From NCBI GenBank assembly GCA_905221615.1, contig CAJNDT010002924.1:669426-733425 (forward strand): a stretch of 64,000 nucleotides of DNA, in the 5' to 3' direction. The notes below the pieces were generated by a model. That model did not search any database. It was not told the origin of the DNA and saw only the letters and a list, made by a program, of their open reading frames with translations. Positions 38,050 through 59,432 of this stretch are shown in pieces; the stretch's first letter is position 1, and every line of letters begins with the position of its first letter. The translations under genes and the position numbers were made by a program. The stretch comes from Symbiodinium sp. CCMP2592. Lineage: Eukaryota > Sar > Dinophyceae > Suessiales > Symbiodiniaceae.

Positions 38050-40445
38050 ACAGGGTTGTGTTTTACAGTGATGTCCTCTTTGAGAAACGCAGCCACCGCG
38101 GATGCACTCCACGCAGCTGATCCTGCAGTCTGTGCAAGGAGACAATGCTCCTGCTTGTGTTTAGAGTTTCTTCTGAGAGTAACGCTTCCACGGCCTCGTC
38201 ACCGCATGTCCCTGGCTCCTGTGCAAGGAGACAATGCTTTTGCTTGCACTTAGAGTTTCTGCTGAGGATAACGCTTCGACGGCCTCGTCACCGCCTGTCC
38301 CTGGCTCCTGTACAAGGAACCAGTGCTCTTGCTTGCGCTTGGAGGTTATGCTGCGGGTAATGCCTCCACAGCTTCGATGTCCTGGCTCGCTGTCCCCTGC
38401 GCAAGGAGACAACCAATCGCGATTCCAAAGGATATTCTGCTGAGGGTGAAGCTTCGGTCGCTTCGTTCAACTCGTACGTCGTCTCCTGGGTAAGGAAACA
38501 ACCAATCACGCTTGGAAAAGATGTTCTATTGAGGGTAAGGCTTCCACACCTTCGTCACCCTCGTTCCATGTCTCCTGTGTAAGGTCACCACCAATCACGC
38601 TTCCAAAGAATGTTCTGTTGAGTGTAAGGCGTCCACCGCTTCTCCACTCTCGTTCGCTGTCTCCTGCGTAAGGAGACAACCAATTACAATTTCAAAGGAT
38701 GTTCTGTTGAGTGTAAGGCGTCCACCTCTTCTCCACTCTCGTTCGCTGTCCCCTGCGTAAGGAGACAACCAATTACAATTTCAAGCAATGTTCTGTTGAG
38801 GATAGGGCTTCCGCCTGCAGGAGGCGTTGGATGTAGAATCCCTGAGCGCAGGGACTACTACAGAGAAAGTATGAGTTGCTGCTGATGCGATGTAAGACTC
38901 TGGCAGGTTCTCGGTTTGTTTCCGTCTTTTCCTGACAGATGATTGTGCAACGCAGCTCTGTTTTCAGTGCCCTTGCTTGTGGTTAGCGGTTCTGTGAAAG
39001 TAAGTCTTCGACCACTTCGTCGCAGTCGGTCGATGTCTCCTGCGCAAGGAGACAACCAATGATCTTGCTTGTGATTACAGGGTCTGCTGCGGTAAGGCTT
39101 CCGCAGCTGCGCTCTTCTTGTTCGCTGTCTCCTTTGTAAGGAGGCAAGCAATCACGTTTTCAATGGATGTGGTGTTGAGGGTAAGGCTTCCACCGCTTCG
39201 GTCCCCTTGTACGCTGTCTCCTGTATAAGGAAACAATCAATCACGCTTGCAAAGGAGGTGCTGTTGAGTGTAGGGCTTCCACATCTTCGCCCCCCTTGTT
39301 CTCTGTCTCCTGTGTAAGGAGACAATCAATCGCGATTCCAAATGATATTCTGCTGAGGGTGAAGCTTCGGTCGCTTCGTTCTCCTCGTACGCTGTCGCCT
39401 GTGTAAAGATACAATCAATCACGATTTCCAATGCTGTTCTGTTGAGGATAGGGCTTGGACGGCCTCGCTCCGGCCGATCGTTGTCTCCTGAATAAGGAGA
39501 CAACCAATTACGCTTTCAAAGGATGTTCTGTCGAGTGTAGGGCTGCCACAGCTTCGTCATCCTCGTTCCCTGTCTCCTGCGCAAGGAGACAATCAATCAA
39601 GATTTCCATGGATGTTCTATTGAGGGTAAGGCTTCCACCTCTTCGCTCCACACGTACGCTGCCTGTATAAGGAGACAACCAAGCACGCTTTCAACTGATG
39701 TTTTGTTGAGTATAAGGCTTCCGCCGCTTCGTTCACATCGTACGCTGTCTCCTGTGTAAGGAGACAATCAATCACGATTTCAAAGGATGGTCTGTTGAGG
39801 GTCGGGCTTCCACAGCTTTGTTCTCCTCGTACGCTGTCGCCTGTGTAAGGATACAATCAATCACGATTTCCAATGATGTTCTGTTGAGGATAGGGCTTGG
39901 ACGGCCTCGCTCAGGCCGATCGTTGTCTCCTGAGTAAGGAGACAACCAATCACGTTTTCAAACAATGTTCTGTCGAGTGTAGGGCTGCCACTGCTTCGTC
40001 ATCCTCGTTCCTTGCCTCCTGCGCAAGGATACAATCAATCAAGTTTTCAAAGGATGTTCTGTTGAGGGTATAAGGCTTCCACCTCTTCGCTCCACGCGTA
40101 CGCTGCCTGTATAAGGAGACAACTAAGCACGCTTTCAACTGATGTTCTGTTGAGGATAAGGCTTCCGCCGCTTCGTTCACCTCGTACGCTGTCTCCTGTG
40201 TAAGGAGACAACCAATCAGGATTTCAAAGGATGGTCTGTTGAGGGTAACGCTTCCTCTGCTTCGTTCCACTCGTACGCTGTCGCCTGTGCAAGGAGACAA
40301 CCAATCACACTTTCAAAAAATGCGCTGTTGAGGGTAAGGCTTCCACCGCTTCGGTCCCCTCGCACGCTGTCTCCTGTGTAAGGAGACAACCAATCACACT
40401 TTCAAAGGATTTGCTGTTGAGGGTAAGGCTTCCGCAGTCTCTTCG
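38050..40445 (+). repeat. ~89-bp tandem minisatellite with internal hairpin, about 27 copies
   Basis: Successive landmarks (AAGGAGACAA and variants) recur every 86-90 bp, for example 38134, 38223, 38312, 38401, 38491 and on to about 40380. Each unit reads GTAAGGCTTCCACCGCTTCG, then CTGTCTCCTGTGTAAGGAGAC, then CAACCAATCACGATTTCAA and ATGTTCTGTTGAGG. GTCTCCT-NNNNN-AGGAGAC is a 7-bp stem with a 5-base loop present in most units. Units diverge by roughly 10-20% by eye, and about 290 bp near 38760-39046 are less regular. Minus-strand frames across several units read repeated peptides (SFEIVIDCLLTQET) because 89-90 bp is close to a multiple of three. These are probably not genes. Confidence 0.85.
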
Positions 40446-40800: not shown

Positions 40801-40970
40801 TCGTGGCTGCACTAACAAAGCTCGAGCCGCGTGCTGCCTTTCCTGGATGTGGCAACCGTTTCTCATGCTTCCTCTCCGGAATCAAACCAAGCTATGCCCA
40901 GTGCTTCTTGGAGCACCATTATCACAGGACCGCGCATGATGAGCAGCGCGGATTCCAGAATTTATTCGGA

Positions 40971-41634
40971 TGTAAGTATTTAGAGCAGTATGTGCATATG
41001 AGAGTGAGCTCTATGGATACCTGTCCGAAAGTCCAAATCGCGATACCGAATGGAAAGCTATATCCTTTGAGGCACGTGAACTAACAACCCAGCGAGAGAA
41101 GAAAGTATCTGCGGCGCAGGATGCGGCCAAGCCGCCCCCCGGCCAGACAGACAGAAAGAAGGAACCCCGGCAACACAGGGCACGGCTGCGCCGCTCCCCG
41201 GCTCAGGCGGGCGAAAGATGAGAAAGAAAGAACCGCTGCAACTGTGGCACGATTTATGCCCCTGCTGCCTTACTTCGATGTGGTAGCTGTTTCTCCAGAA
41301 ATTATTTGGATGTAAGTATTTAGAGCAGTATGTGCATATGAGAGTGAGCTCTATGGATACCTGTCCGAAAGTCCAAATCGCGATACCGAATGGAAAGCTA
41401 TATCCTTTGAGGCACGTGAACTAACAACCCAGCGAGAGAAGAAAGTATCTGCGGCGCAGGATGCGGCCAAGCCGCCCCCCGGCCAGACAGACAGAAAGAA
41501 GGAACCCCGGCAACACAGGGCACGGCTGCGCCGCTCCCCGGCTCTGGCGGGCGAAAGATGAGAAAGAAAGAACCCCTGCAACTGTGGCAGGATTTATGCC
41601 CCTGCTGTCTTACTTCGATGCGGTAGCTGTTTCT
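40971..41634 (+). repeat. Tandem 340-bp duplication
   Basis: 40971-41310 is repeated at 41311-41634 with only a few substitutions (for example CGGCTCAGG versus CGGCTCTGG, GCTGCCT versus GCTGTCT). Similarity ends at TAGCTGTTTCT in copy 2. A poorer match to the unit end precedes copy 1 near 40850-40890, so the array may once have been longer. The unit has a short frame rich in Arg and Pro (PSRPPARQTERRNPG), not convincing as a gene. Confidence 0.85.
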
Positions 41635-42268: not shown

Positions 42269-42578
42269 CTATAGGCAATACTTTCTAAAGGTTGTGCTCG
42301 GTATGGAACTGATATACCTGATGCATAGGCAGGACATGCATATGCAAGTATAGTTTGGTTCGTGATGATTCCATATAATGTTGCCTTCTCCACAACCTCC
42401 ACAAATTCGGGTGTGATGTCTTCTCAATTCTGAGGATGCTGCGACGCAGGCCACGAAGTCTCTAAGGCCTGCAAATGTGCGAAGATCATAGATACGTGGT
42501 TGCATTCCTTGTTCCAAGCTCAAATTGCAGAAAGCAAACACGACTTGATCTTGTTTATGCTGACTCCCGCGAACTGTC
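42269..42578 (-). CDS. 3' continuation of the transposase reading, different frame
   Basis: After the transposase stop at 42579, another minus-strand frame is open through to about 42269 and reads like protein, with YDLRTFAGLRDFVACVAASS and a Cys-rich end RICGGCGEG. Its sense begins in the last codons of the transposase frame, where a one- or two-base shift would join them. Alternatives are a short intron or a separate exon. It may be a C-terminal zinc-binding tail of the transposase. Confidence 0.4.
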
Positions 42579-44056
42579 TCAATCGCGTCGACGTGACTTT
42601 ACACCGGCACTTCGCAGTGTGTGCATCCGTTTAACGGATAGTGGCGTGACACGTCTCTTGACGACGTGGTTCTTACGTCCTTTACAAGCAGGTTTTTTCT
42701 GTAGGTGTTGCCGAACCAGTTTCGCCTCGTGCCGGTTGGCAGAGGACAAAGGAAGTGCGGCCTTCTTAGGCACTGTCTCTGACGATTGTTCAGAGCACCA
42801 CGCGGTCCAGTCATCACCGTACCACAGCGATGCGTGCAGGGATCTGCTTAGCAGCATACTGGCACTCACCACATGCGATAGAGGATGCTGGACAGATAGA
42901 TAATGTAACAACAACTTGATGTATCTGAAGTACATTAGCTTCATAGCCAAAGTAGAGCGATGCATCGCAGTGATGCTTCGAGTCCAGGAATTCACTTCGG
43001 CATGGAGGGCTTCGTTACTCGACGTCCCGCTTGGCAGGAACCATCGATACGAAGGTTGAATGGCGTGTCTTACACGCAAGTTGTTCATCATCCACTCCAA
43101 GCGATCGGGCGAGCATGCAGACCATAAAATCTTGTTGATCTGCTTGTTGGCACCTGCAATCTTTTTGTTGACTTCATTGGGATATCGTTGACATAGGGCA
43201 GCCAGTGCCTTGATGAATTCCAGACGGTTCGAGAACGGTACCTGCATGTCCAGCTTGTCCAGGATGTTCTTGCTCTCAGATGGAGTCATGGATGAAGTCG
43301 AAATCATGTCCCTGTACTTTATCTCAACTTCGCCCAACGGATTGGCGTTCCTGCCATCGTAGAATGGACCCCAGCAATCACGACCCAGATCGTCGTCCAC
43401 GGCAGTGCATTTTTTCAGTATGCGACGAAGTTGTTTAGATCCAGGACTCTTCTTGTTCCAAAATCCATACTCGTAAACAATAGCCAAGTGAATGGGATCC
43501 AGAATCAGAGATTTCATACACGGACATATGCTCTGCAACTGACTGAAGAGTTTCTCGGATGGGCTGTCCGTCCCAATGTGCACCACCGCCTGAAGCTGCT
43601 CTGTGGAGAAGTTCTGGCTTAGCGCCTCCACAAGCTGCTCCGACGATTCGTTTTGAAGTGGATGCATCAAGAGGACTGCACCCGTGCGACCGCGAACGGT
43701 CAGTAGTCTCCGCCACGCCACATCGTCTCCAAAGGGCGCTTCGTCCCGCACAGCCTTCGGCGACCTGTAGGAAGCTTGGCCCATCAGCTTCATGCACAGT
43801 TTCAGGGTGGCGTCCATGCTGATATAATGCCATTCATCTTGTTGCATGAGGACATTGCTCATGCTCTCCATCTTATCAAGGAACGCATGAGATGTGGCGA
43901 TGTCCTCAAGCATAGGCATCCAATGCTGCGACCGTCGCGGTAGCAAGCTAGCCAGCTTGTTGTTGGATTCGAAGGCGGCCATATGACATCTCGTAGATAC
44001 TGCTCGAACCTGAGTACGACAGTAGGTCAAGCTAAAGCACACAACGTTGCCAGATC
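42579..44056 (-). CDS. DDE-type transposase (RNase-H-like fold)
   Basis: This is a 487-residue frame counted from a GTG at 44042. It is open further upstream into the polymerase frame, so that GTG is not a trusted start. Visible motifs: D77 in YISMDATLKLCMKLMGQ; LLTVRGRTGAVLLMHPL (115-130); D159 in HIGTDSPSEKL; LDPIHLAIVYEYGFW (181-195); E344 in PSGTSSNEALHAEVNSW. D77, D159 and E344, with a long helical insertion between the second Asp and the Glu, fit the DDE arrangement of Mutator-like and related eukaryotic transposases. The tail (from about residue 440) is basic, KRRVTPLSVKRMHTLRS. It would cut and join element DNA ends in the nucleus. Superfamily assignment is inferred. It follows the polymerase frame without intergenic space, so it is probably the C-terminal part of a fusion. 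Confidence 0.6.
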
Positions 44057-47000
44057 CTATGTGTATTCGTGCAGTCTGGAGGCTTGAGCATGATTCAGGA
44101 CCATTTCTCGTAGAAGGAGATCCGCAAAGGAGCGCGTGTAGTACAAGTTCCGGACTCGTCTGACTTGCACACTCTTGCCGAGACTGGTGACATTGACGTA
44201 CTGTGGCCCGGTGGCATCGAATATCAATCGAATCTGTTTATCGATGTGATTTTGTGTAAATGGCAGTGATGGCTGAATCATTGATCTGAGAATACTAGCA
44301 CTCTCCTGCAACATGTTCGAAGATGTAGTTTGCGAAGAAGCTGCGTGATCATGCAGAGCCAATATAATCTTGATCTGCTTCGTGCCAGAGCACACGTACT
44401 GATTCTTTCTGGTATGATGTTTCGCGATGTGTGTCCTCAACAGCCGAAGTTGAGAGAAAGATCTGAATGGACACAGAGGACACCTTCTTCTCCCCTCACA
44501 TCTTTCGGAAATCCTATAAAGATCTTTCATGACGAAGTCTGCTTCTTCACTCAAGCGGTTCATAATGTTGTCGCTGAAAACCGGAACATTGTCTTCATCG
44601 AAGGACAACCTATTGATGCTGGATGCAGCGGAGGCTTCGGCCACATCATCACAAGTATCTTCTTCGGAATCATGTGGAGCCTCACGTGCACCTGCAACCA
44701 TATCCAGCAACAATGAGGATTTGCCATCGATCTTGTCGCGGGAATCTGGTTTCCAATACGACACCATGGTGGCGTGATCCACGGCTGCAGAATGGATTTC
44801 TCGAAAAATTGCCATGGTGAGCTTGTACACTGTGGCCCCATCCAGGATTGTAACGTTTTTCCCAGCAGCATCTACTCTGACAGCCAGACAGTGTGGGACG
44901 CCCTGTCCTTCGTAATGTATAACGAAAGATTTCACATGCGACTCAGGCAGACCAACACAGCTGGCGAGATCAATCGAACACATGGAAGCTACAGAACGGT
45001 AATCTCTGTATTTCATCTTCTTGGCATCGATGTTCTTCTCCAATGTTTCGTTTGATATCGCAGCGACCACAACTGGTCTAACAAGTGGCGTCATGTGCCA
45101 GACGGCACAGGGTATGCAGTTGCCTGGTTGCAATAGAAGAGCAGGTACATTCGTAACTGAATTGGCATGAGTACTTCTGTTCTTCACCAAGTCGATGAAG
45201 GAAAAATGCTTTTTCTCCACAATCTTCACCATGAAGCCAGTCCGCATTCTGATTGCATTCTCACAATCCTTGATGAATTCATCTTGCGACGTCTCAATGT
45301 GATCTCTGGATATTCGAAGACCATCGAAGTGAAGAGACAAGTGCTTTGGCTTGCTCGGACGACTCAATATATGTTCGGTCCAACTCTGCAGAATCCTGTC
45401 TTCGACTGAGGTCCAAAGCAATGATAGGATGGTGGAAGATGGGAATGTCTTATGCTTGTTGTCCGCAAGCGACATATAGTCCTCGTGTAGCATATTGCAT
45501 GCAACCCAACGGACATACTGTGAGAGTCTTTGCAGATCATAGACAATCTCATTGTTTTTCAATGCCGGAAATGGGCTGCCACCGTTCAGAACGGTGTTGA
45601 TCATCTCCTTGCCCTCCACGATATGAAGCCCGAGCTGATTCAGCACAGCTGTTCGATCATTCACCAAACGATCCAGAAGTTTCACAAGATTGTCAGGCAT
45701 GGGTGGCTGTGGCTCGACCTTAGCAATGATCTGCTGCAACAATGTAAGACAACAGTTCTGGATATCCAAATCGACTGTATGACCGTCCACAACGTGAGAT
45801 TGGAGTCGACGGGACATGGACTGCACTCCACCATTGTTAGTGTAGCGGCGTGCTCGCACCGTGTACGGTACCTTCTCAGAGTAGGCATACGATATGGTTC
45901 GGCCGTGCTTCAGAGAACTCCAACTTTTTCCATCCAGAGAGACATGATCGACCGACTCATGGTCGTCCTCCTCCACCGACTTCTTCCCTCGCAAGCGTCG
46001 TCCATGCTTTGTTGATACAATCTGCTGAAGGCAGTTTTCGTGATCTTCAAGCTTCCGAATGAGAGACTGATACTTCTGCACGATTTCTTCCGTTTCTGCT
46101 GTGCGGCGTCCTTTCTTGGAGGCAGGAATCATTGCCTTGTAGAATGCCTTCATGGTGTCCGCGTTCATGCTGCGACCACGGCAGCTGTGAGCGTACTTTT
46201 TTGCTAAGCCGATGTCTTGCTCCTCTTCAAATTGCAGTCGAACAGTGTCCAATGCAGCCTGTGGGCAAATATCAGCATGAGGTTTGCTGAAGATCAAATT
46301 GGGGATGTATGCCCCGGGCTTCTCTTTGCTGGTTTTCTGCCGAATGAGAGCCGTGCGAACAACGCCCTTCTCTTCAAGTTGATCCCACATGACTCCCTTG
46401 GCCAGATTGGGATGTTGGCCTGGCTTGAAGTTCATCTTCTTGAACTCGTGGAACGTCATCACGTCCATCTCTTTCTCCAGCATGTAGGTGGTGAGGAAGT
46501 TTTTTAATTTGATCCATTCCTGGTCTCTCTCGTCACGTTCGTCCGCACTGTCTTGTCCTGCCGCCATGACGTTGCCCAGCCCTTCTTCCTCGTGCTCCTG
46601 ACGAACTCGCACTGGCAGACCGCATGCATCTCTCATGATGTCTTCGGTCAAATGGCCGTCGCCTCCATTGCAGTAGTCTTCGATGAGTTGGTAGCAGTCT
46701 TCCTTACTGTGATCCACCTCGAAGGCCCACTGCAACTTCAATCCTGCAATGGAGGCTTGGGATGTGGACAGAAACTTGCTTAGGCTGGGATCCGCTTCGA
46801 AAATGCCGTCCTTCTCATGATCTGGATAATGTCGTAGGAACTTGCCATGGACGAAGCGGGCCTTTGCTTTCCAGACGAAGGAGCGTCTGAACATGGAGTT
46901 GAAATTGCCGTTGGTCACACCGAGGAAAGCCATGACCCTGTTCACCTCCAGCCTTGTCCACCCAATCATTTGGAACATGCGGGTGCTGTATCCATAGGGT

Positions 47001-47263
47001 TTTCTGCCCATAATCCCGTCGCCTGAAATCGTCTTTTTGTAGAGATCTATGTGCGTTTTGCGATTCGTTTCCGGAGCTTCTTGACCCGTCAGGACGAAGC
47101 ACTTCGCAAATGATTCGACTTGTTTTCTTAGTTCTTCGTCGAGGTGCCAAATGTTTGGGTCAAAATAGCTGTGATTGTGCTTGTACATTTCCGAGAGGTG
47201 GAGAGAATATAAACTCTGGTCCAACGCCGCCTGGTGAGATGCCGATGAAGCACCGATCGACAT
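44057..47263 (-). CDS. SF3-helicase-like / TV-Pol-like polymerase / Cys-protease-like / C2H2 fusion
   Basis: 1068 residues if the ATG at 47263 is used, but the frame is open upstream and overlaps the nuclease frame by 104 nt. Residues 1-185 resemble the C-terminal part of SF3/D5 helicases (DEELRKQ, YKKTISGDGIMGRKPYG, GIFEADPSLSKFLS). Residues 470-690 look like the TV-Pol family (family A-related polymerases of transposons and small viruses): RARRY 470-474, Q481, metal-binding VDLDIQN (D498, D500), GKEMINTVLNGG 551-562 and LHFDGLRI (D647). Residues 714-810 resemble a cysteine protease: GNCIPCAVW (C716 or C719), PHCLAVRV (H791), TILDG (D808). A C2H2 finger has C928, C931, H945 and H949/H950. 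The last 100 residues (HIDKQIRLIF, RNLYYTRSFADLL) precede the transposase. Expected role: replicate the element and process the product. Confidence 0.6.
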   Translation of the reverse strand: MSIGASSASHQAALDQSLYSLHLSEMYKHNHSYFDPNIWHLDEELRKQVESFAKCFVLTGQEAPETNRKTHIDLYKKTISGDGIMGRKPYGYSTRMFQMIGWTRLEVNRVMAFLGVTNGNFNSMFRRSFVWKAKARFVHGKFLRHYPDHEKDGIFEADPSLSKFLSTSQASIAGLKLQWAFEVDHSKEDCYQLIEDYCNGGDGHLTEDIMRDACGLPVRVRQEHEEEGLGNVMAAGQDSADERDERDQEWIKLKNFLTTYMLEKEMDVMTFHEFKKMNFKPGQHPNLAKGVMWDQLEEKGVVRTALIRQKTSKEKPGAYIPNLIFSKPHADICPQAALDTVRLQFEEEQDIGLAKKYAHSCRGRSMNADTMKAFYKAMIPASKKGRRTAETEEIVQKYQSLIRKLEDHENCLQQIVSTKHGRRLRGKKSVEEDDHESVDHVSLDGKSWSSLKHGRTISYAYSEKVPYTVRARRYTNNGGVQSMSRRLQSHVVDGHTVDLDIQNCCLTLLQQIIAKVEPQPPMPDNLVKLLDRLVNDRTAVLNQLGLHIVEGKEMINTVLNGGSPFPALKNNEIVYDLQRLSQYVRWVACNMLHEDYMSLADNKHKTFPSSTILSLLWTSVEDRILQSWTEHILSRPSKPKHLSLHFDGLRISRDHIETSQDEFIKDCENAIRMRTGFMVKIVEKKHFSFIDLVKNRSTHANSVTNVPALLLQPGNCIPCAVWHMTPLVRPVVVAAISNETLEKNIDAKKMKYRDYRSVASMCSIDLASCVGLPESHVKSFVIHYEGQGVPHCLAVRVDAAGKNVTILDGATVYKLTMAIFREIHSAAVDHATMVSYWKPDSRDKIDGKSSLLLDMVAGAREAPHDSEEDTCDDVAEASAASSINRLSFDEDNVPVFSDNIMNRLSEEADFVMKDLYRISERCEGRRRCPLCPFRSFSQLRLLRTHIAKHHTRKNQYVCSGTKQIKIILALHDHAASSQTTSSNMLQESASILRSMIQPSLPFTQNHIDKQIRLIFDATGPQYVNVTSLGKSVQVRRVRNLYYTRSFADLLLREMVLNHAQASRLHEYT

Positions 47264-49372
47264 TGAAGCCTCTCTTGGCGATGGCTGCGGCAGCTTGGAA
47301 ACACTTGAACACGTCCAAGTTGCACCAAAATGTTCTCTCGTAGAATCCTTGGAGTCTGTCCATGTTAGCTTCCATGACTGGATCCAGCAAGGGATGTGGA
47401 ATCCTCACATAACAGTTGTTCTGCGGGCCCTTTTTCACCACTTCTACTGGAAGAAAGGATCCGGGTCGATCATATGCAAGGCAGAGATCATCGTAACATA
47501 TAGTTGACGACCTTCTGTCTTCCGTCTCACACCACTCCACGAGCAAGGAAACCATCCTTGTCTGCATGAGCTCTTGTTTGATGATACAGGACACCTTCCA
47601 GGACCTAGATGCCATGTCCAGAGGCCACGATTCACATGCATCTTGTCCGGATTGATTGCGACCGCGAACATCCTCTTCGTCATCATCCAATCTCTGTGAG
47701 TACGCAGGTGTCTGAGATCTTTTGTTCGTGGCATTCCTACATTCTGTGAAGTAGTCCGACTCCGTCTCGAAGTTCTGCATGTCCGCTGCGATGGCGTTAG
47801 CAACCGAAACTGCATCTCGAACGATTTCGGGTTTCATGCGTCGGAATATTCCTTCAAGACAACAAAAGAAGTCACCAACACGGTGTAGAACAGCTTCAGG
47901 AGGAATTCCGCCAAATGGCATGAAACAGCCATCGTCATCGTAGATGAAAAGGAAACCTTTGTGGACACGCATGTGACAGTCACCTTCTACCATCCAGGTA
48001 ATGGCAGCGGCGTCCGGCAGCATAGGCTTATCACCGATTTTGCCAGTGGTCATGTGAACGGCCACCATGATCAAACGTTTCAGTTGATCCGACATCCAGG
48101 GGTACTTGGTCTGGAGGGAGCTCACCATGTTCCTCGTGTTCTGCATGATGGTGTTAGGCTGCAAACAAACATCTGCTCCATATGTATCAAGGGTATTCTT
48201 GATAATGTCGAGGGATCTTGCAAACATGTTTTTGCAGTCCAGAGCATGTGTGTCGGCTCCCGGCATCAATCTTCTTTTCTTGGCTAGGCCATGTGTAGTT
48301 TTGTCCTCTTCCTCCAACATGAGTTCTTCCAGTGCAATCTCCATTTCATCTTTGGTTGGTGGAGGGCCTGTAAGCATGACTTCAAACTCCAACGTATCTG
48401 GAATATTGCCCTGACTATCTTGTCCGGGTGGCAGGCTTTCACATCCATGAGCAGGACCCGGAGCGTCGTGGGCCTGGCCAGGACCGATCTCTGCACGTTC
48501 AGCATTTTGCATTGAAATGGCAGCCTTCTTGTTTCGGCAGCATTGCATCATCTTGGCAACCGTCGTCTGCATGTCAGGTACAATGTCCACGAGTCCATGT
48601 GGAAGGTAACGCGGATGTACGCATACGACTTTCATTTGCTGCACCTTGATGTCATAGTAGTTCTCTAAGATCCATTTGTAGATATTGAGCTGCAATCGAT
48701 AATGCTGTCCTTGGCAGTCATCTACATCCTGTATAGGAGGAGCCATTTTCTTGCCGTAGCTGTTGTACTTGTCCTGCAGGTTCTCACTCCGTTTCCAGTC
48801 GACGAGATGAAAAACGTCAGTGTCTTTGTCCTTGAGAACCAAGTCGATGGACCCTGCCAAATCTTCTTCAGGTGCACAGATGCACCATTCTGTACGGTAG
48901 ACTTCGACATTATCCAAACCAGACAGGAACCGAATGACTGCAGTCATTTCTCCCTCCATAGGTCCGGGTTGTATTTTGTAGCCATTCAGCATATGCTCCA
49001 GCATCGCATGCATCCAAGTACCAGAGTTGGCAGCAGCTATGCGTTTCCTGTCCCAGTGCAGCATGATTTCGTTATCGGACATAGCCAATGCACTGACGAT
49101 TTCATCCCAGCCGTTCAAGTCTTCTTTGCTCAAAGCAACCAAACGACAGATTTCCGAAATGTTCGGATCACTTTGCCGGAGAAGATGTACCAGGTCTGCC
49201 TGATACTTGAAGTCCATCCCTTGAAGCATGGCTGCGATAGACGGCAAACTGATGGACGGGTCCACATATTCTGGCCTAGGCCATTGCTTCCCAGACTTCA
49301 TCTTCATCAGCGCCACCGCCGGTTCGAACTCTTCCGCGTATTGGTGGATGAGTCCGGTAACCTCACTTCACA
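47160..49372 (-). CDS. RecB-like PD-(D/E)XK nuclease with D5/SF3-like N-terminal part
   Basis: 718 residues counted from a GTG at 49316; the frame is open back to a TGA near 49371, which appears to be intronic. Nuclease motifs: GTWMH (99-103), TEW (E143), LAGSIDLVL (D158), HLVDWKRS (D173, K175) and YRLQLNIYKWILE (Q209, Y213), the RecB/Cas4-type signature. Residues 390-560 resemble the region before SF3 helicases (DDDGCFMPFGGIPPEAVLHR). The C-terminus reads CFIGISPGGVG, a P-loop-like motif, then loses sense. The continuation QSLYSLHL lies in the polymerase frame one base on. The protein probably trims or processes DNA ends during element replication. A single-base change or a +1 shift at about 47218-47222 would unite both frames. 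Confidence 0.65.
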
Positions 49373-49433
49373 TGCACAATGTTCAAAGTTATAGGGACAG
49401 TCATGCAGACATGTATGTCTTGCAGCCAGGCAG

Positions 49434-49660
49434 CACTGCAGGAGATTTTGTTCCCTTCGTAGAAGTAGTGATGACCAGCGGGCTCGAAACGAAGCCGTGC
49501 ATCAAGTTGACACTGGTTTACGCACGACAATTCTTTGCACGGGAGCAGCTTGGACGTGCTTTCGTCATCATGTCTAATTGGAACCTGAAAGGAAGGATCC
49601 CGTGGAGGCTCCAGTAAAACCGCACCGACGACGTCCTCGAGGCCAGCGGGCCATTCACCT
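49434..49660 (-). CDS. Upstream exon of the nuclease
   Basis: A minus-strand frame without a start codon runs from a CTAAG|GTGAA boundary near 49660 to about 49438. It reads EPPRDPSFQVPIRHDDESTS and ends in RFEPAGHHYFYEGNKISC. H-x-Y-x-Y-x-G followed by SVTGLIH-like sequence is the usual N-terminal lead-in of phage and giant-virus-like RecB nucleases, and SEVTGLIHQYAEEFEP is exactly what opens the next exon at about 49367. The ~70-nt gap between them (49364-49433) therefore looks like an intron. Its donor is not GT in any phase that keeps the frame and acceptor, which agrees with the relaxed donors seen elsewhere in the window. Confidence 0.55.
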
Positions 49661-50163
49661 TAGAGTGTGTAGTTAGGTGCCATGATGTTAAACATGTTCC
49701 ACACAATCGCAGAAACAAAGTATATTCTTTGCAGGACGGAGTGGCTTGCTTCTGCAGCAGCTTCCTTGGCATTGGACTCAGTGAACGCTGCATCGTTGAA
49801 GCCATTGGCTTCCGTACCTCGTATAGTTTTTTATGTTACAACGAACATAGACCGTTAACATGCAAGGATTCCATGGCTTCTGTAATATATACTTGCTGTA
49901 ATTTGACTTGCCTCCGCACGATGCGTCGTCAACGTCCATCTGAGATGATGCCTCAGTATCAACAACTTTTATAGATTCTAGTAACATCGTATGCGCAATA
50001 ATAATGGCATTGGTGTACGTTATCCCGAACCGAAGCAATTTACAATGACACTGGTCATGCTCTACAGGCACCACGTCACTTGCCTAAGGTAAGACTAGCA
50101 GGCTTTCCGACTCATGGACGCTGATACTTCTACAGAATACTCCACACACACACACCATTGTGA
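49661..50163. other. Non-coding gap inside the element
   Basis: About 500 bp between the zinc-finger ORF stop (50164) and the nuclease upstream exon. No convincing exon was found. It may be an intron joining the two coding blocks, or a spacer containing a promoter for the nuclease-polymerase part. A short CA run (ACACACACAC) is at 50146-50156. Confidence 0.4.
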
Positions 50164-52060
50164 TCAAGCCACCGATCCTCCCAAGAAATCCATATTGTGC
50201 GATACCATTTCCAGATTCGAATTGGATACCAGGAGCTCGTCGTCCCAGTCGTGACTTGTTCCATCCGGAGCCTGCACGTAAGAATCTCCATCATTGTCCT
50301 CAGCCCCACCCAAGTAATCCTGGAGACGATACTCGCAGCCAGGACATCTTCTCCATGGAGACTCCCCGACATGGGACGCGCAAACCCATGTCGTGCACAT
50401 GGGGCAGACACACCAACGAGGTATCATGATGGTGTGCTCTTGGTGACAAATTGCACACCTGATGGATGCATTCAGTTGCAGCAAGGATGGCACTGCAGCT
50501 ACTCGGGGTCGCGTGGAAAGCGGACGCTGTGGCCCGAAACCCCAAATAAATACTTGAGACAAGGCAGGAGCCAGTCTTTCATTCGGAGCAGTCACCGATG
50601 CACGCAGAACACCTTGGTGATTCAGTCCAACAGAAAAGAATCTTGTGTTCCATCGGAGATGGAATCTGTTGCTTCGGTTCACAATGAACTCGAAGCGGCT
50701 GGCTCGTGTGTAAGGTCTGGCCGGTCTGTTGTTCATGCCCAAAGACCAGGCAACTGGTGTCTGAAATATATTGTCGATTCGACAATAAAATCTGGTTTCA
50801 CCATGCCATTCCCTGACACCAACAACAAGTGATCGCAGCTGTGCCGGTAGAACGATGTCGAAGTCCGCGACACCGAGCAGCGGCTGCATGGACTGGAAGC
50901 CGAACATTACGAACGGCGGCAGAGAATGTCGGGGAACAGGTGTCGGTGTCCAGTTCAGCCTGATGTTTGCTGGTATGATGAGGAACATGCTCAACTGATG
51001 TATATTCACGCAAACCCACCTGGCCCGGCTGAGCAAGTCTATCATGCTGCGGAGGCGGGCCGACACCAGAAGGTCTGGTCGATCGATGTCAACAACTAGG
51101 TCTTGCCAGTGTGTTTTGTCTCGAACCAGGCTCAACATTCTCGAGGAAGCAGCAGCAAGTGCATGAAGATAATCGTGCTCGAAATAGAAGGATGGTAAGT
51201 ATCCCAGCACCTCCACTGGCAACACAACACCACTCCCGCCACAGCGATCATTGTGATACCGAACATGAGCTGCGCCAGCCGATGCATCATAGAAAGGAGG
51301 GTCCCAGAAACCAGAACTGTCGGAACCTTCCGTCTCAGACTCACTATCCAAAGAAATTGGAAGTGTAGTGGTCATTCTCTCCGAGTCAGCTGGCTGTGCG
51401 ATGTACAGACCTGGAAGAAATACCTGGACCGGCTGGGGCTCATGCAAGATTACAAAAGGCTCCTCTTCTGATTGCTGGAACTGCATTGTGGCCCACGTGT
51501 CCAGTATGTCCGCTGCAGCGTTCTCGACTGTCTTGCCGCCTACACGATCGAGACACATCGATGAGGACCACAAGGATGATAACGAGCTGGTGCTGTGTGT
51601 AGGGACAACAGCAAAGATTTGGTCGTACGACCCACCATTGAACTCTTCCGGCAGCATGCTCTTGTACTCGTGTCTCCGATGACTGGTTTGTAGCATCATG
51701 GTACCATCGTCCAAGACACGGAGACCCATAAAATGTTGGTTCGCATAGAGCAAGTAGATTCCACGAGAAAGGTTTTGCTCGTAATGGGGAACGACGTGAT
51801 GCCTCAGCGATTGCTGTAATGGATATATTGTTTAAATTATTAGTAGACAAGCTATAATGTTAAATTTGCAAACGGACACCTAGGGTTAGCAAACGTCGAG
51901 TCTACTTCATCCTGAGCAAGAAGCTTGTGGGGTTGCAACAGGCGGTTCCCATCCGCCAAGGCCCACATAGGCCCGTGCTTCTCATACTTGACCGGGAAGC
52001 CAACGGAACGAAGCGCGTCTACCAGGCAGGTATCACGGAACTTGTGGTTGCCTCAGTGTG
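50164..52060 (-). CDS. Cysteine-protease-like plus RING-like zinc-finger protein
   Basis: An uninterrupted frame of 529 codons from 51753 to 50164 is open further upstream to about 51815 (LRHHVVPHYEQNLSRGIYLL). A separate exon at about 52055-51880 reads NHKFRDTCLVDALRSVGFPV. Together C-LVDAL (candidate nucleophile Cys) and LLYANQHFMGLRVLDDG (candidate His, then Asp) look like a papain-like or OTU-like cysteine protease. The middle has leucine-rich helices and a beta-rich part without recognised motifs. The C-terminus has CAIC, CVCPMC, CASH and CPGC, eight possible zinc ligands spaced like a RING or related treble-clef pair, then an acidic tail. It may process the polyprotein or act in ubiquitin-like modification. 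Both ideas are inferred. Confidence 0.5.
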
Positions 52061-52199
52061 GTGGTTCGTATGTTTTTTACTCGATCAATCTTTCTATAAA
52101 TTTAATACGGATGAGTGACAGTCATCGGATGGCCACGGCATAGATTGTCTCGTCTTGGCCGTTGCGAGGGCACGGACCGGCTCGGCCATGAGGTGATGC

Positions 52200-53090
52200 G
52201 ACAGAATCTGCTGGGACCTATGACTGCGTTTGAACATGACACAGCATCATCACAGGTTCTTGGGTATAAGTTTGACATACATCTCTAATGCTATGGACGA
52301 GTGGCAAGTTCAAGTGACCTCTTCTTCCATGCACGCCCGGAGCGTGCTTCACTGACGGGATCCGGCTTGGTCTGCTCGAACCAATTGTCCTCATATGGAA
52401 GGGGCACATCAAAAAGGGAATGTGTAGCAGCACTATGTCCTTCCAGAGGGCGATCTCGACAGCTTCACAGTCGCCGTGCTCGGCAGCATGCAATTATGCA
52501 AGACGATGTTGTCGCCTTGCTTTCAGGATGTATCGCTGAAGGTGTTACATCACACAGAAGACCTAGTGCATGCTTGTAGATATTGAATGATTGTAGAAAC
52601 CAAGCAGCACCAATTGGGCGTGTCGTGTGACTTCTGACCGATATGCATGAAGCCAATCCCTTGGTGATACAGATAGATGGTAGCACAGACAACTGCAGCT
52701 CTCGAGAGGTGGCATGTATGTTCTCAAGGGTCTAATATGCAACATGGGAACATCGTTTGTGATCGCTTCGATATTCGAGCTCTGCCAGCTCCTTGTGAAT
52801 GAGTCGATCGGTCCTTTCCTGCAAACATTTTCATTGCAAGATCGGAAATATTCTGCAAGCCAAACCAAGTTGACGTGCATACGATAGCAAATTCATATTT
52901 GCAGCCGATCTACACTGTAATGGATCTGGTTCATGCGCCGGTCCCATGCATCTATGTCGTCAGCTGACAACCCCTGACACTCATCCGGCACGACCGGCAC
53001 ATCCGACCTTAATCGAGAGATAAACAGTGTCATAACTGTATGCCGCATGATAATGCTGTCAGGTTGCAGCGGCATGTCCTGCGTGTTCAT
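52200..53090 (-). pseudogene. Broken upstream coding pieces of the element
   Basis: Minus-strand protein-like fragments in changing frames: 53085-52905 (DVPVVPDECQGLSADDIDAW), 52870-52720 (MHVNLVWLAEYFRSCNENVC), 52690-52500 (RPIGAAWFLQSFNIYKHALG) and 52490-52370 (EHGDCEAVEIALWKDIVLLH). No single frame continues for long and clear splice sites are lacking, so this is either a multi-exon 5' part of the element gene or a decayed one. No family was recognised. Confidence 0.35.
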
Positions 53091-55249: not shown

Positions 55250-55308
55250 GCTCGTAGCAGCTTGAGTAGTAGTAGTAGTGGTAGTAGTAGTAGTAGTAGT
55301 AGTAGTAC

Positions 55309-55356
<48 letters not shown>

Positions 55357-56105
55357 CAGTAATAGTAGTAGCAGTAATAGTAAGTAGTAAGTAGTAAGTA
55401 GTAAGTAGTAAGTAGTAGGTAGTACGTAGTAAGTAGGAAGTAGTACGTAGTACGTATAGTAAGTAGTAAGTAGTAAGCAGTAAGCAGTAAGCAGCAAGTA
55501 GTAAGTAGTAAGTGGTAAGTAGTAAGCAGTAAGCAGTAAGTAGTAAGCAGTAAGTAGTAAGTAATACGGTAGTAAGTAGTAAGTAGTAAGAAGTAAGTAT
55601 TAAGTAGTACGTAGTAAGTAGTAAGTAGTACGTAGTACGTATAGTAAGTAGTAAGAAGTAAGCAGTAAGCAGTAAGCAGCAAGTAGTAAGTAGTAAGTGG
55701 TAAGTAGTAAGCAGTAAGCAGTAAGTAGTAAGCAGTAAGTAGTAAGTAGTAAGTAGTACGTAGTAAGTAGTAAGTAGTAAGCAGTAAGCAGTAAGCAGCA
55801 AGTAGTAAGCAGTAAGCAGTAAGTAGTAAGCAGTAAGTAGTAAGTAGTAAGTAATACGTAGTAAGTAGTAAGTAGTAAGAAGTAAGTATTAAGTAGTACG
55901 TAGTAAGTAGTAAGTAGTACGTAGTACGTATAGTAAGTAGTAAGAAGTAAGCAGTAAGCAGTAAGCAGCAAGTAGTAAGTAGTAAGTGGTAAGTAGTAAG
56001 CAGTAAGAAGTAAGTAGTAAGCAGTAAGTAGTAAGTAGTAAGTAGTACGTAGTAAGTAGTAAGTAGTAAGAAGTAAGTAGTAAGTAGTACGTAGTAAGTA
56101 GTGAA
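55250..56105. repeat. (GTA)n then TAGTAAG-type 7-bp array, left block
   Basis: 55260-55375 is (TAG/GTA)n with AGC variants. From 55380 the DNA is a run of the 7-mer AGTAAGT with variants AGCAAGT, AGTACGT, AGAAGTA and AGTGGTA. Variant 7-mers come in a recurring order, so a higher-order unit is visible. Because 7 is not a multiple of 3, all three minus-strand frames read the same Tyr/Leu/Thr heptapeptide-like repeats; these are not genes. Confidence 0.9.
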
Positions 56106-56400
56106 GTAAAATGAAGATAGTGGTAGGTCGTCGTCGTACTAGTAGTAGTAACACGGGTAGCAGCATTGGGAACAGCAGCAGAAGTAGCAGTAGCAGCAGA
56201 AGTACTGGTGGAGTAGCGTAACTCGCGCGTCACAATCATTACCAAACCTTGCTGACCTTGCTGCACTCTTTGCAAGCCCGTCCAGCCGATGCAGTCTCAG
56301 AGCCGTCCCTTCAGGACGAGCTCCTCCACCCTCCAGAAGCCTGGCTTGGCCACACCTTCTTTCGGGTCTGGACGAAGTGTGGGCAGAAGGTACTTACACC
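56106..56400. repeat. Segment duplicated across the N gap, left copy
   Basis: From the end of the left array to the first N, this matches about 57054-57353 almost exactly, with one visible difference (GGACGAG versus GGACCAG near 56315/57269). It contains a copy of the 3' end of the minus-strand gene annotated at 57251-57900 (FWRVEELVLKGRL). The copy stops exactly at the gap. Confidence 0.9.
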
Positions 56401-56500
56401 NNNNNNNNNNNNNNNNNNNNNNNNNNNNNNNNNNNNNNNNNNNNNNNNNNNNNNNNNNNNNNNNNNNNNNNNNNNNNNNNNNNNNNNNNNNNNNNNNNNN
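56401..56500. other. Assembly gap (100 N)
   Basis: Exactly 100 N bases, the conventional size for a gap of unknown length. The left flank is a duplicate of sequence 950 bp to the right and the right flank resumes inside the TAGTAAG array. The join is therefore unreliable. Confidence 0.99.
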
Positions 56501-57060
56501 AGTAGTAAGTAGTAAGTAGTAAGTAGTAAGTAGTAGGTAGTACGTAGTAAGTAGGAAGTAGTACGTAGTACGTATAGTAAGTAGTAAGAAGTAAGCAGTA
56601 AGCAGTAAGCAGCAAGTAGTAAGTAGTAAGTGGTAAGTAGTAAGCAGTAAGCAGTAAGTAGTAAGCAGTAAGTAGTAAGTAGTAAGTAGTACGTAGTAAG
56701 TAGTAAGTAGTAAGCAGTAAGCAGTAAGCAGCAAGTAGTAAGTAGTAAGTGGTAAGTAGTAAGCAGTAAGCAGTAAGTAGTAAGCAGTAAGTAGTAAGTA
56801 GTAAGTAGTACGTAGTAAGTAGTAAGTAGTAAGAAGTAAGTAGTAAGTAGTACGTAGTAAGTAGTAAGTAGTACGTAGTACGTATAGTAAGTAGTAAGAA
56901 GTAAGCAGTAAGCAGTAAGCAGCAAGTAGTAAGTAGTAAGTGGTAAGTAGTAAGCAGTAAGCAGTAAGTAGTAAGCAGTAAGTAGTAAGTAGTAAGTAGT
57001 ACGTAGTAAGTAGTAAGTAGTAAGAAGTAAGTAGTAAGTAGTACGTAGTAAGTAGTGAAG
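56501..57060. repeat. TAGTAAG-type 7-bp array, right block
   Basis: Same 7-mer array and same higher-order order of variants as the left block. The last ~70 bp before GTGAAGTAAAATGAAG are identical in both blocks. It may be the same locus assembled twice, or a true duplication. Confidence 0.9.
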
Positions 57061-57250
57061 TAAAATGAAGATAGTGGTAGGTCGTCGTCGTACTAGTAGT
57101 AGTAACACGGGTAGCAGCATTGGGAACAGCAGCAGAAGTAGCAGTAGCAGCAGAAGTACTGGTGGAGTAGCGTAACTCGCGCGTCACAATCATTACCAAA
57201 CCTTGCTGACCTTGCTGCACTCTTTGCAAGCCCGTCCAGCCGATGCAGTC

Positions 57251-58713: not shown

Positions 58714-58758
58714 TTGGATTGATGACCGACAACTAGAGACATTTATGCATTTCAAACA
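58714..58758. repeat. 45-bp inverted repeat, right copy
   Basis: Exact reverse complement of 55109-55153. It is followed at once by the GC-rich 59-bp minisatellite. The distance between outer ends of the two copies is 3650 bp in this assembly, including the gap. Confidence 0.9.
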
Positions 58759-59432
58759 CGCGCGCCCGGAGGCGGCAGCCTTTATGAGTACGCACGCCCG
58801 GAGGCAGCTGCTTGGAGCACGCACACCCGAAGGCGGCTCGAGAGCACGCACGCCCGGAGGCGGCGGCTTGGAGCACGCACGCCCGGAGGCGGCTGCTCAA
58901 GAGCACGCACGCCCGGAGGCGGCGGCTTGGAGCACGCACGCCCGGAGGCGGCGGCTCAAGAGCACGCACGCCCGGAGGCGGCGGCTCGGAGCACGCACGC
59001 CCGAAGGCGGCGGCTCAAGAGCACGCACGCCCGGAGGCGGCGGCTCGGAGCACGCACGCCCGGAGGCGGCGGCTCAAGAGCACGCACGCCCGGAGGCGGC
59101 GGCTCGGAGCACGCACGCCCGAAGGCGGCGGCTCAAGAGCACGCACGCCCGGAGGCGGCGGCTCGGAGCACGCACGCCCGAAGGCGGCGGCTCAAGAGCA
59201 CGCACGCCCGGAGGCGGCGGCTCGGAGCACGCACGCCCGGAGGCGGCGGCTCAAGAGCACGCACGCCCGGAGGCGGCGGCTCGGAGCACGCACGCCCGAA
59301 GGCGGCGGCTCAAGAGCACGCACGCCCGGAGGCGGCGGCTCGGAGCACGCACGCCCGACGGCGGCGGCTCAAGAGCACGCACGCCCGGAGGCGGCGGCTC
59401 GGAGCACGCACGCCCGAAGGCGGCGGCTCGGA
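58759..59432 (+). repeat. GC-rich minisatellite, 29/30-bp monomers in 59-bp dimers
   Basis: Monomers GAGCACGCACGCCCGGAGGC + GGCGGCTC end alternately in AA (30 bp) or G (29 bp), giving a 59-bp dimer. There are about 23 monomers in all, with GAAGGC in place of GAGGC in a subset. All three plus-strand frames are open across the array, because no stop codon occurs in any phase of the dimer. The protein repeat is therefore 59 residues long and cycles through HARPEAAA, THARRRRL and ARTPGGGG blocks. No start context or splice site supports translation. Confidence 0.9.

What the first reader, a model, noticed from the sequence alone, without database searches (positions are those of the whole stretch)
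42269..53090. Composite element: RecB nuclease + SF3-like helicase + TV-Pol-like polymerase + proteases + C2H2 + DDE transposase on one strand
Seen: in one 10-kb minus-strand block, motif sets for a PD-(D/E)XK nuclease (D158, D173-x-K175, Q209..Y213), an SF3/D5-like helicase C-terminal part, a polymerase with DLDIQN and HFDGLRI motifs, a C/H/D protease-like segment, a C2H2 finger and a DDE transposase (D77, D159, E344). Known: TV-Pol proteins are family A-related polymerases found in mobile elements and small DNA viruses; Polintons self-replicate with PolB and an integrase. Inferred: this is a distinct self-synthesising eukaryotic transposon lineage encoding one polyprotein. I know of no described element with this exact order.
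Basis: partly seen in the sequence, partly recalled or inferred. Interest (0 to 1): 0.92.

Follow-up and report, generated by a model that had tools for sequence, protein, structure and literature searches.

The report
Polymerase-carrying transposon polyprotein of dinoflagellates
A decayed copy of a dinoflagellate jumping gene that appears to encode, in one long protein, a transposase together with a virophage-type DNA polymerase, a phage-type exonuclease and a helicase-like domain, as if the element could copy itself; this exact combination was not found in the papers searched.

The parts
52893..53090 (-). possible first coding exon (ATG at 53090)
   Evidence: Weak tblastn match of P0030 residues 86-130 to 53030-52896 (E 0.073); tentative.
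51924..52070 (-). exon of an N-terminal cysteine-protease-like domain (TCLVDALRSVG...)
   Evidence: 49% identity over 49 aa to Polarella gene model P0061, residues 79-127, E 7e-9; protease role inferred from motif look only.
50164..51831 (-). 5' ORF, 555 aa; C-terminal Cys-rich (RING-like by eye) cluster
   Evidence: two homologues, P0181 (67% identity) and P0182, among the 7991 candidates scored; no Pfam match for the ORF, only E 0.072 for P0181. Part of the gene or a separate one: not settled.
49582..49644 (-). short exon upstream of the nuclease
   Evidence: 90% identity over 21 aa to gene model P0030.
49420..49548 (-). exon with the start of the exonuclease domain (LRFEPAGHHYFYEGNKIS)
   Evidence: Matches P0067 (49548-49453) and P0027 (49542-49420) just before the VTGL motif.
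48498..49070 (-). PD-(D/E)XK exonuclease domain (D175, D190-x-K192, Q226-x3-Y230)
   Evidence: phrog_298 exonuclease E 2.4e-16; 16 of 27 aligned members; cas4 model in 12 of 27, best E 8.7e-5.
47202..47690 (-). helicase-like domain, N part, with Walker-A-like SPGGVG(Q)S; the reading frame breaks inside this motif (about 47237-47220)
   Evidence: SPGGVGQS in 35 of 35 relatives that have SPGGVG.
46664..47206 (-). helicase-like domain, C part (QEAPE ... GRKPYGY ... GW.R.E.N)
   Evidence: Conservation; phrog_1156 DNA primase covers this region in 1 relative, P0027, E 4.6e-4; low model confidence.
45164..45916 (-). TV-Pol-type family-A polymerase domain: R472, D498/D500 (DLDIQN), K552, D647 (HFDG)
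44678..45166 (-). papain-fold cysteine-protease-like domain (GNCIPCALWH ... PHCLAV ... DG)
   Evidence: Weak Foldseek matches of the model to USP deubiquitinases and viral ubiquitin hydrolases, E 0.5-2, whose place on the model is not printed; C716 34/38, H791 31/36, D808 29/35.
44414..44485 (-). C2H2 zinc finger
   Evidence: zf-C2H2_4 E 0.0021 in the window, below Pfam's cut-off; 10 of 38 members.
44010..44083 (-). 74-bp GC-AG intron joining the C2H2 region to the transposase
   Evidence: gene model P0001 ends one block at 44084 and begins the next at 44012, 91-94% identity.
42579..44009 (-). DDE transposase exon (D115, D197, E382; RNase H fold with large helical insertion)

Best explanation
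It is a decayed copy of a large dinoflagellate DNA transposon whose multi-exon gene makes a polyprotein: exonuclease, helicase-like domain, TV-Pol polymerase, cysteine-protease-like domain, C2H2 finger, DDE transposase. Proposed mechanism: the C2H2/DDE part binds the element's ends, cuts and re-inserts it (enzyme class shown by fold and residues; action inferred). The polymerase with the helicase-like domain copies the excised or nicked element, and the exonuclease resects ends or flaps for annealing or processing (inferred). The protease-like domain(s) cut the polyprotein into working enzymes (inferred, weakest step). Thus it would work like a Polinton, with TV-Pol in place of PolB and a cut-and-paste type transposase in place of a retrovirus-like integrase, and with no capsid gene recognised.
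Against: No terminal inverted repeats above shuffled sequence between the flanks; no second copy's DNA could be had. Nuclease and DDE domain were seen in one chain only in P0062 (a gene model, short DDE piece; below the cut-off); the full order is otherwise joined through overlapping proteins. The Walker-A Lys is Gln in 35 of 35, so the helicase-like domain may not hydrolyse ATP. Protease Cys or His is lost in some relatives. Foldseek gave no PDB match at E <= 1e-3 for either model. Replication has not been observed.
Confidence: 0.72

Rival explanations
1. It is the replication and integration module of a polinton-like virus (PLV) of dinoflagellates; capsid, ATPase and other virion genes lie elsewhere in intact copies or were lost here.
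For: The top viral match is a virophage protein. PLVs with pPolB or TVpol-S3H and with a tyrosine recombinase or DDE-type transposase exist in Cymbomonas (passages). Dinoflagellate genomes hold PLV/virophage capsid genes, 2,535 in Polarella glacialis (passages). The 5' ORF (50164-51831) has no known family.
Against: No capsid or packaging-ATPase family among 13 of the 27 window ORFs of 200 aa or more (ORF list; scans) or in P0181; Pfam's sensitivity to these capsids was not measured. The helicase-then-polymerase order differs from the TVpol-then-S3H order of virophages. Five IMG/VR scans with queries from this family found no viral contig, though such scans reach close relatives only.
Confidence: 0.17
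2. A conventional DDE transposon inserted beside, or captured, a virus-derived replication gene that is now only passenger DNA; movement needs the transposase alone.
For: The largest architecture class is DDE alone (86 of 182 proteins), although ORF cutting at introns and the choice of queries produce that too. Absence of the Walker-A Lys and loss of protease residues fit relaxed constraint on some domains.
Against: Polymerase residues are almost invariant; the two parts co-diverge; fusion is found across the tree.
Confidence: 0.08
3. Chance neighbourhood of unrelated decayed genes or a gene-prediction artefact.
For: The window copy is broken by a frameshift and introns; some relatives are misjoined gene models.
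Against: Same order in many relatives, often in one chain; exact contig-length matches.
Confidence: 0.01
4. A domesticated host gene.
For: Relatives with an organism name are confined to Suessiales dinoflagellates.
Against: Several divergent clusters named for one species (5 for Symbiodinium microadriaticum), a broken copy in the window, and a transposase in the same chain.
Confidence: 0.02

Closest known systems
Polinton/Maverick self-synthesising transposons
   Same: Eukaryotic element pairing its own DNA polymerase with a DDE-superfamily recombinase and a cysteine protease.
   Different: Family-A TV-Pol instead of protein-primed PolB; IS256/hAT-like transposase instead of RVE integrase; one polyprotein; no capsid recognised; TIRs not shown. 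(Polinton features partly recalled, partly passages.)
TVpol-encoding virophages and polinton-like viruses (Sputnik/OLV; Gezel-like PLVs of Cymbomonas)
   Same: TV-Pol linked to an SF3-type helicase; the Cymbomonas group includes TVpol polymerases and DDE-type transposases (whether in one genome was not seen).
   Different: Those have capsid genes and, in virophages, TVpol N-terminal to S3H. Here the helicase-like part precedes the polymerase and an exonuclease is fused in front.
Bacterial TV-Pol elements (Iyer et al. 2008, PMC2579912)
   Same: TV-Pol next to resolvase, integrase or RNase H-fold transposase; proposed as replicative transposons.
   Different: Bacterial; [quoted passage not shown]
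Teratorn (piggyBac x herpesvirus)
   Same: DDE transposon that acquired a viral genome (abstract; DDE nature of piggyBac recalled).
   Different: 180 kb, largely a herpesvirus; here a compact polyprotein.
IS256 (ISCth4) and hAT (Hermes) transposases
   Same: RNase H fold with a helical insertion before the last Glu; best structural matches.
   Different: No sequence-family match: 0 Pfam families for the window's transposase; among the 44 aligned members (window included) only single-member hits (ISL3, E 0.07).
OmPLV helicase SF1-pPolB fusion of Oxyrrhis marina (PMC12721341)
   Same: Dinoflagellate element with a giant helicase-polymerase fusion with exonuclease domain (passages).
   Different: PolB and SF1 helicase, tyrosine recombinase, capsid-bearing virus.

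Membership tests
TV-Pol (PMC2579912) | Two metal-binding Asp in a superfamily-A palm | tested here: met
TV-Pol (PMC2579912) | Beta-hairpin Arg contacting template | tested here: met
   R472 36 of 37, between strands E452-461 and E473-475; aligned with the Arg of phage/plasmid TV-Pols. Template contact itself not testable.
TV-Pol (PMC2579912) | RxxxK motif in the fingers | tested here: inconclusive
   K552 38 of 38, but Arg four before it in only 2 of 38 rows; R537 is Arg in 36 of 37. By eye, the aligned Lys of the comparison TV-Pols also lacks Arg at -4. The paper's alignment figure, which would fix which Lys is meant, is not held.
TV-Pol (PMC2579912) | Profile similarity to known members | tested here: met
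   hhalign prob 95.2, E 2.5e-8; E 2e-7 with the whole ORF profile. The set A4 (four sequences, one partial) was chosen by me: gp030 of Ma-LMM01 by motif and transposase neighbours, three plasmid proteins by similarity; none is annotated as TV-Pol in its record.
SF3/D5 helicase | Walker A GxxxxGK[ST] | tested here: not met
   SPGGVGQS, Gln for Lys, in 35 of 35. So it is called helicase-like only. (Motif recalled.)
SF3/D5 helicase | Profile or fold match | tested here: inconclusive
   phrog_1156 in 1 of 27 members, E 4.6e-4 and the same one of 38; model residues 1-240 have 10-residue pLDDT blocks all under 60.
PD-(D/E)XK exonuclease (phage exonuclease/Cas4/RecB-like) | D ... [DE]xK ... QxxxY motifs and family match | tested here: met
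DDE transposase, helical-insertion class (IS256/hAT-like) | RNase H fold, D/D/E, helical insertion between last strand and Glu | tested here: met
   Fold only; superfamily assignment by sequence inconclusive.
Polinton/Maverick | Protein-primed PolB | tested here: not met
   The polymerase is family A.
Polinton/Maverick | RVE-type integrase | tested here: inconclusive
Polinton/Maverick or PLV | Major capsid protein and packaging ATPase | tested here: inconclusive
   None among 13 of 27 window ORFs of 200 aa or more and P0181; intact copies not available.
Self-synthesising transposon (any) | Terminal repeats and target-site duplications | tested here: inconclusive
   Best inverted match score 26 (direct 27) against 40 shuffles of mean 25.0, maximum 31; element edges unknown.

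The most novel reading that the evidence does not exclude
A previously undescribed, capsid-free superfamily of eukaryotic self-synthesising DNA transposons, ancestral at least in Suessiales dinoflagellates. Its whole replication and transposition machine (exonuclease, helicase-like domain, family-A primase-polymerase, protease, DDE transposase) is one self-processing polyprotein.
Probability: 0.5. Interest if true: 0.85.

Novelty: new variant of a known kind. Interest (0 to 1): 0.74.

Why it matters
Iyer et al. (2008) proposed TV-Pol elements as replicative transposons and as possible precursors of Sputnik; a eukaryotic, transposase-fused TV-Pol without a recognised capsid is what such a capsid-free relative could look like. 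It also runs against their statement that TV-Pols are never linked to nucleases, offers a candidate contributor to the repeat load of giant dinoflagellate genomes, and gives a single polypeptide in which copy-and-move transposition can be tested domain by domain.

Tried and rejected
Ends: blastn and Smith-Waterman between flanks found nothing above shuffles; the downstream satellite and 340-bp duplication are not at an identified edge. More copies: viral-contig scans with P0007, A2, A3, P0052 and P0114 gave none. A prokaryote-genome scan with the transposase alignment gave none; one with a plasmid TV-Pol gave none either, not even its own kind, so such scans are insensitive. Viral-contig scans for comparison TV-Pols: 16 loci for gp030, best-segment identity 84-94%, none for the W9N plasmid protein. 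Phage tblastn with P0007 (20 of 23 rows shown) and P0027 (3 rows): only the nuclease part matched in the rows shown. PDB sequence searches: only zinc fingers and chance-level rows, E 0.1 or worse. RVE integrase rows rank below ISCth4 and Hermes; that is not an exclusion. Maverick repeat labels in Breviolum (passages) might include this element; not testable here. My domain HMMs were built from the same proteins they then scanned; the C2H2 hit of P0052 falls at residues 1176-1298, where I see ankyrin-like rather than C2H2 sequence, and is probably false. Literature: ten searches gave no paper describing this element, judged from the listings (several cut at 20 rows, at 20 of 337) and the passages read; most subscription papers, preprints on bioRxiv and Repbase are not held.

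Papers seen: PMC2579912 parts 1-2 of 3 and passages; PMC11071213, PMC12721341, PMC11453091, PMC3671162, PMC10675990, PMC10120064 passages only; PMC5601938 abstract and outline.

Full report
What is there. Four long minus-strand ORFs occupy 51831-42579. GC is 48-51% in 2-kb windows across the block. Pfam sees only a weak C2H2 finger and a weak PDDEXK_1, but PHROGs calls the 49367-47160 ORF an exonuclease at E 2.4e-16.

Relatives. The polymerase ORF has 69 homologues and the transposase ORF 116, a lower bound because candidates were capped. The closest gene model, P0001 of Symbiodinium sp. CCMP2592, covers 48344-42597 in five pieces, 90-94% identical over the three longest. The window is therefore almost certainly Symbiodinium or near it (inference).

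One gene. P0001, P0004 and P0031 run across the polymerase/transposase boundary. In the window the joint is a 74-bp intron, GC at 44083 and AG at 44010. Domain HMMs built from my own alignments were run on 182 proteins at E <= 1e-5: 67 carry the polymerase, 132 the DDE domain, 22 both; 21 carry nuclease and polymerase, 52 helicase C part and polymerase. No protein carries nuclease and DDE together in the table; scanned alone, gene model P0062 of Symbiodinium microadriaticum holds nuclease, polymerase, protease and a 39-residue DDE piece (E 2.3e-6 for one sequence). Otherwise the full order is joined through overlapping proteins. Polymerase and transposase identities correlate over 14 pairs (ten contig-matched, the window, three gene models), r 0.784, Mantel p 0.0001. 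In a 55-row polymerase tree (54 of the 67 had enough of the domain) the 15 DDE-fused forms need 8 label changes and occur on both sides of the midpoint; 'not fused' there includes ORFs cut at introns, so the count is not a history.

Exonuclease. phrog_298 matches 16 of 27 aligned members; 10-11 of the 27 rows are gapped at its motifs. cas4 matches 12 of 27 at up to 8.7e-5. The fold was not modelled.

Helicase-like domain. Motif look (SPGGVGQS, QEAPE, DG..GRKPYG) resembles SF3/D5 (recalled). One relative matches a phage primase family over this region, E 4.6e-4. The Gln in place of the Walker-A Lys (35 of 35) speaks against an ordinary ATPase; the model here is poor.

Protease-like domains. Residues 700-860 fold confidently. 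Foldseek's weak rows include USP deubiquitinases (E 0.5-1) and viral ubiquitin hydrolases (E 0.9-2); that they align to this part is my inference, as ranges are not printed. The would-be catalytic Cys is Ser in 4 of 38 and the His is replaced in 5 of 36, so activity is doubtful in some lineages. An upstream exon (52070-51924) matches a Polarella gene model that carries it in front of the nuclease.

State of this copy. The frame breaks inside the Walker-A-like motif, so this copy is not autonomous as it stands; relatives with that stretch in frame exist. No other copy lies in the window by tblastn with the 182 proteins.

Mechanism. Shown: enzyme classes for exonuclease, polymerase and transposase, and their joint inheritance. 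Inferred: DDE cutting and joining at ends bound by the C2H2 region; copying by TV-Pol with the helicase-like domain; end processing by the exonuclease; polyprotein cleavage.

Known or new. TV-Pols were described in bacterial elements, a plastid and virophages, with the statement that they never show nuclease fusions or linkages. Cymbomonas PLVs with pPolB or TVpol-S3H and with a tyrosine recombinase or DDE-type transposase are reported, and a dinoflagellate PLV with another polymerase too. I found no paper with this polyprotein (searches named in Tried and rejected). I therefore file it as a new variant of the self-synthesising transposon kind, with the reservation that the ends are unproven.

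Noticed in passing
window 38130-40433: 89-bp satellite array with a 442-bp higher-order unit downstream of the transposase.
   Followed up: no
window 40954-41634: 340-bp unit duplicated in tandem at 97% matches.
   Followed up: no
window 55265-57062: 7-bp AGTAGTA microsatellites on both sides of a 100-base N run at 56401-56500 (an assembly gap), and a 59-bp tandem repeat at 58757-59429.
   Followed up: no
window 47237-47220 and relatives: Walker-A-like SPGGVGQS has Gln where Lys is expected in 35 of 35 proteins with SPGGVG: either a dead or an unusual ATPase.
   Followed up: partly
window 50164-51831: 555-aa ORF with a C-terminal RING-like Cys cluster and only two homologues among the candidates scored.
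   Followed up: partly
relative P0052: A JGI relative carries ankyrin repeats and no DDE hit.
   Followed up: partly
relatives P0139, P0164, P0057: Transposase or polymerase pieces of this element sit inside proteins named aconitate hydratase, HERC2 and LINE-1 ORF2 in Symbiodinium records, probably misjoined gene models.
   Followed up: no
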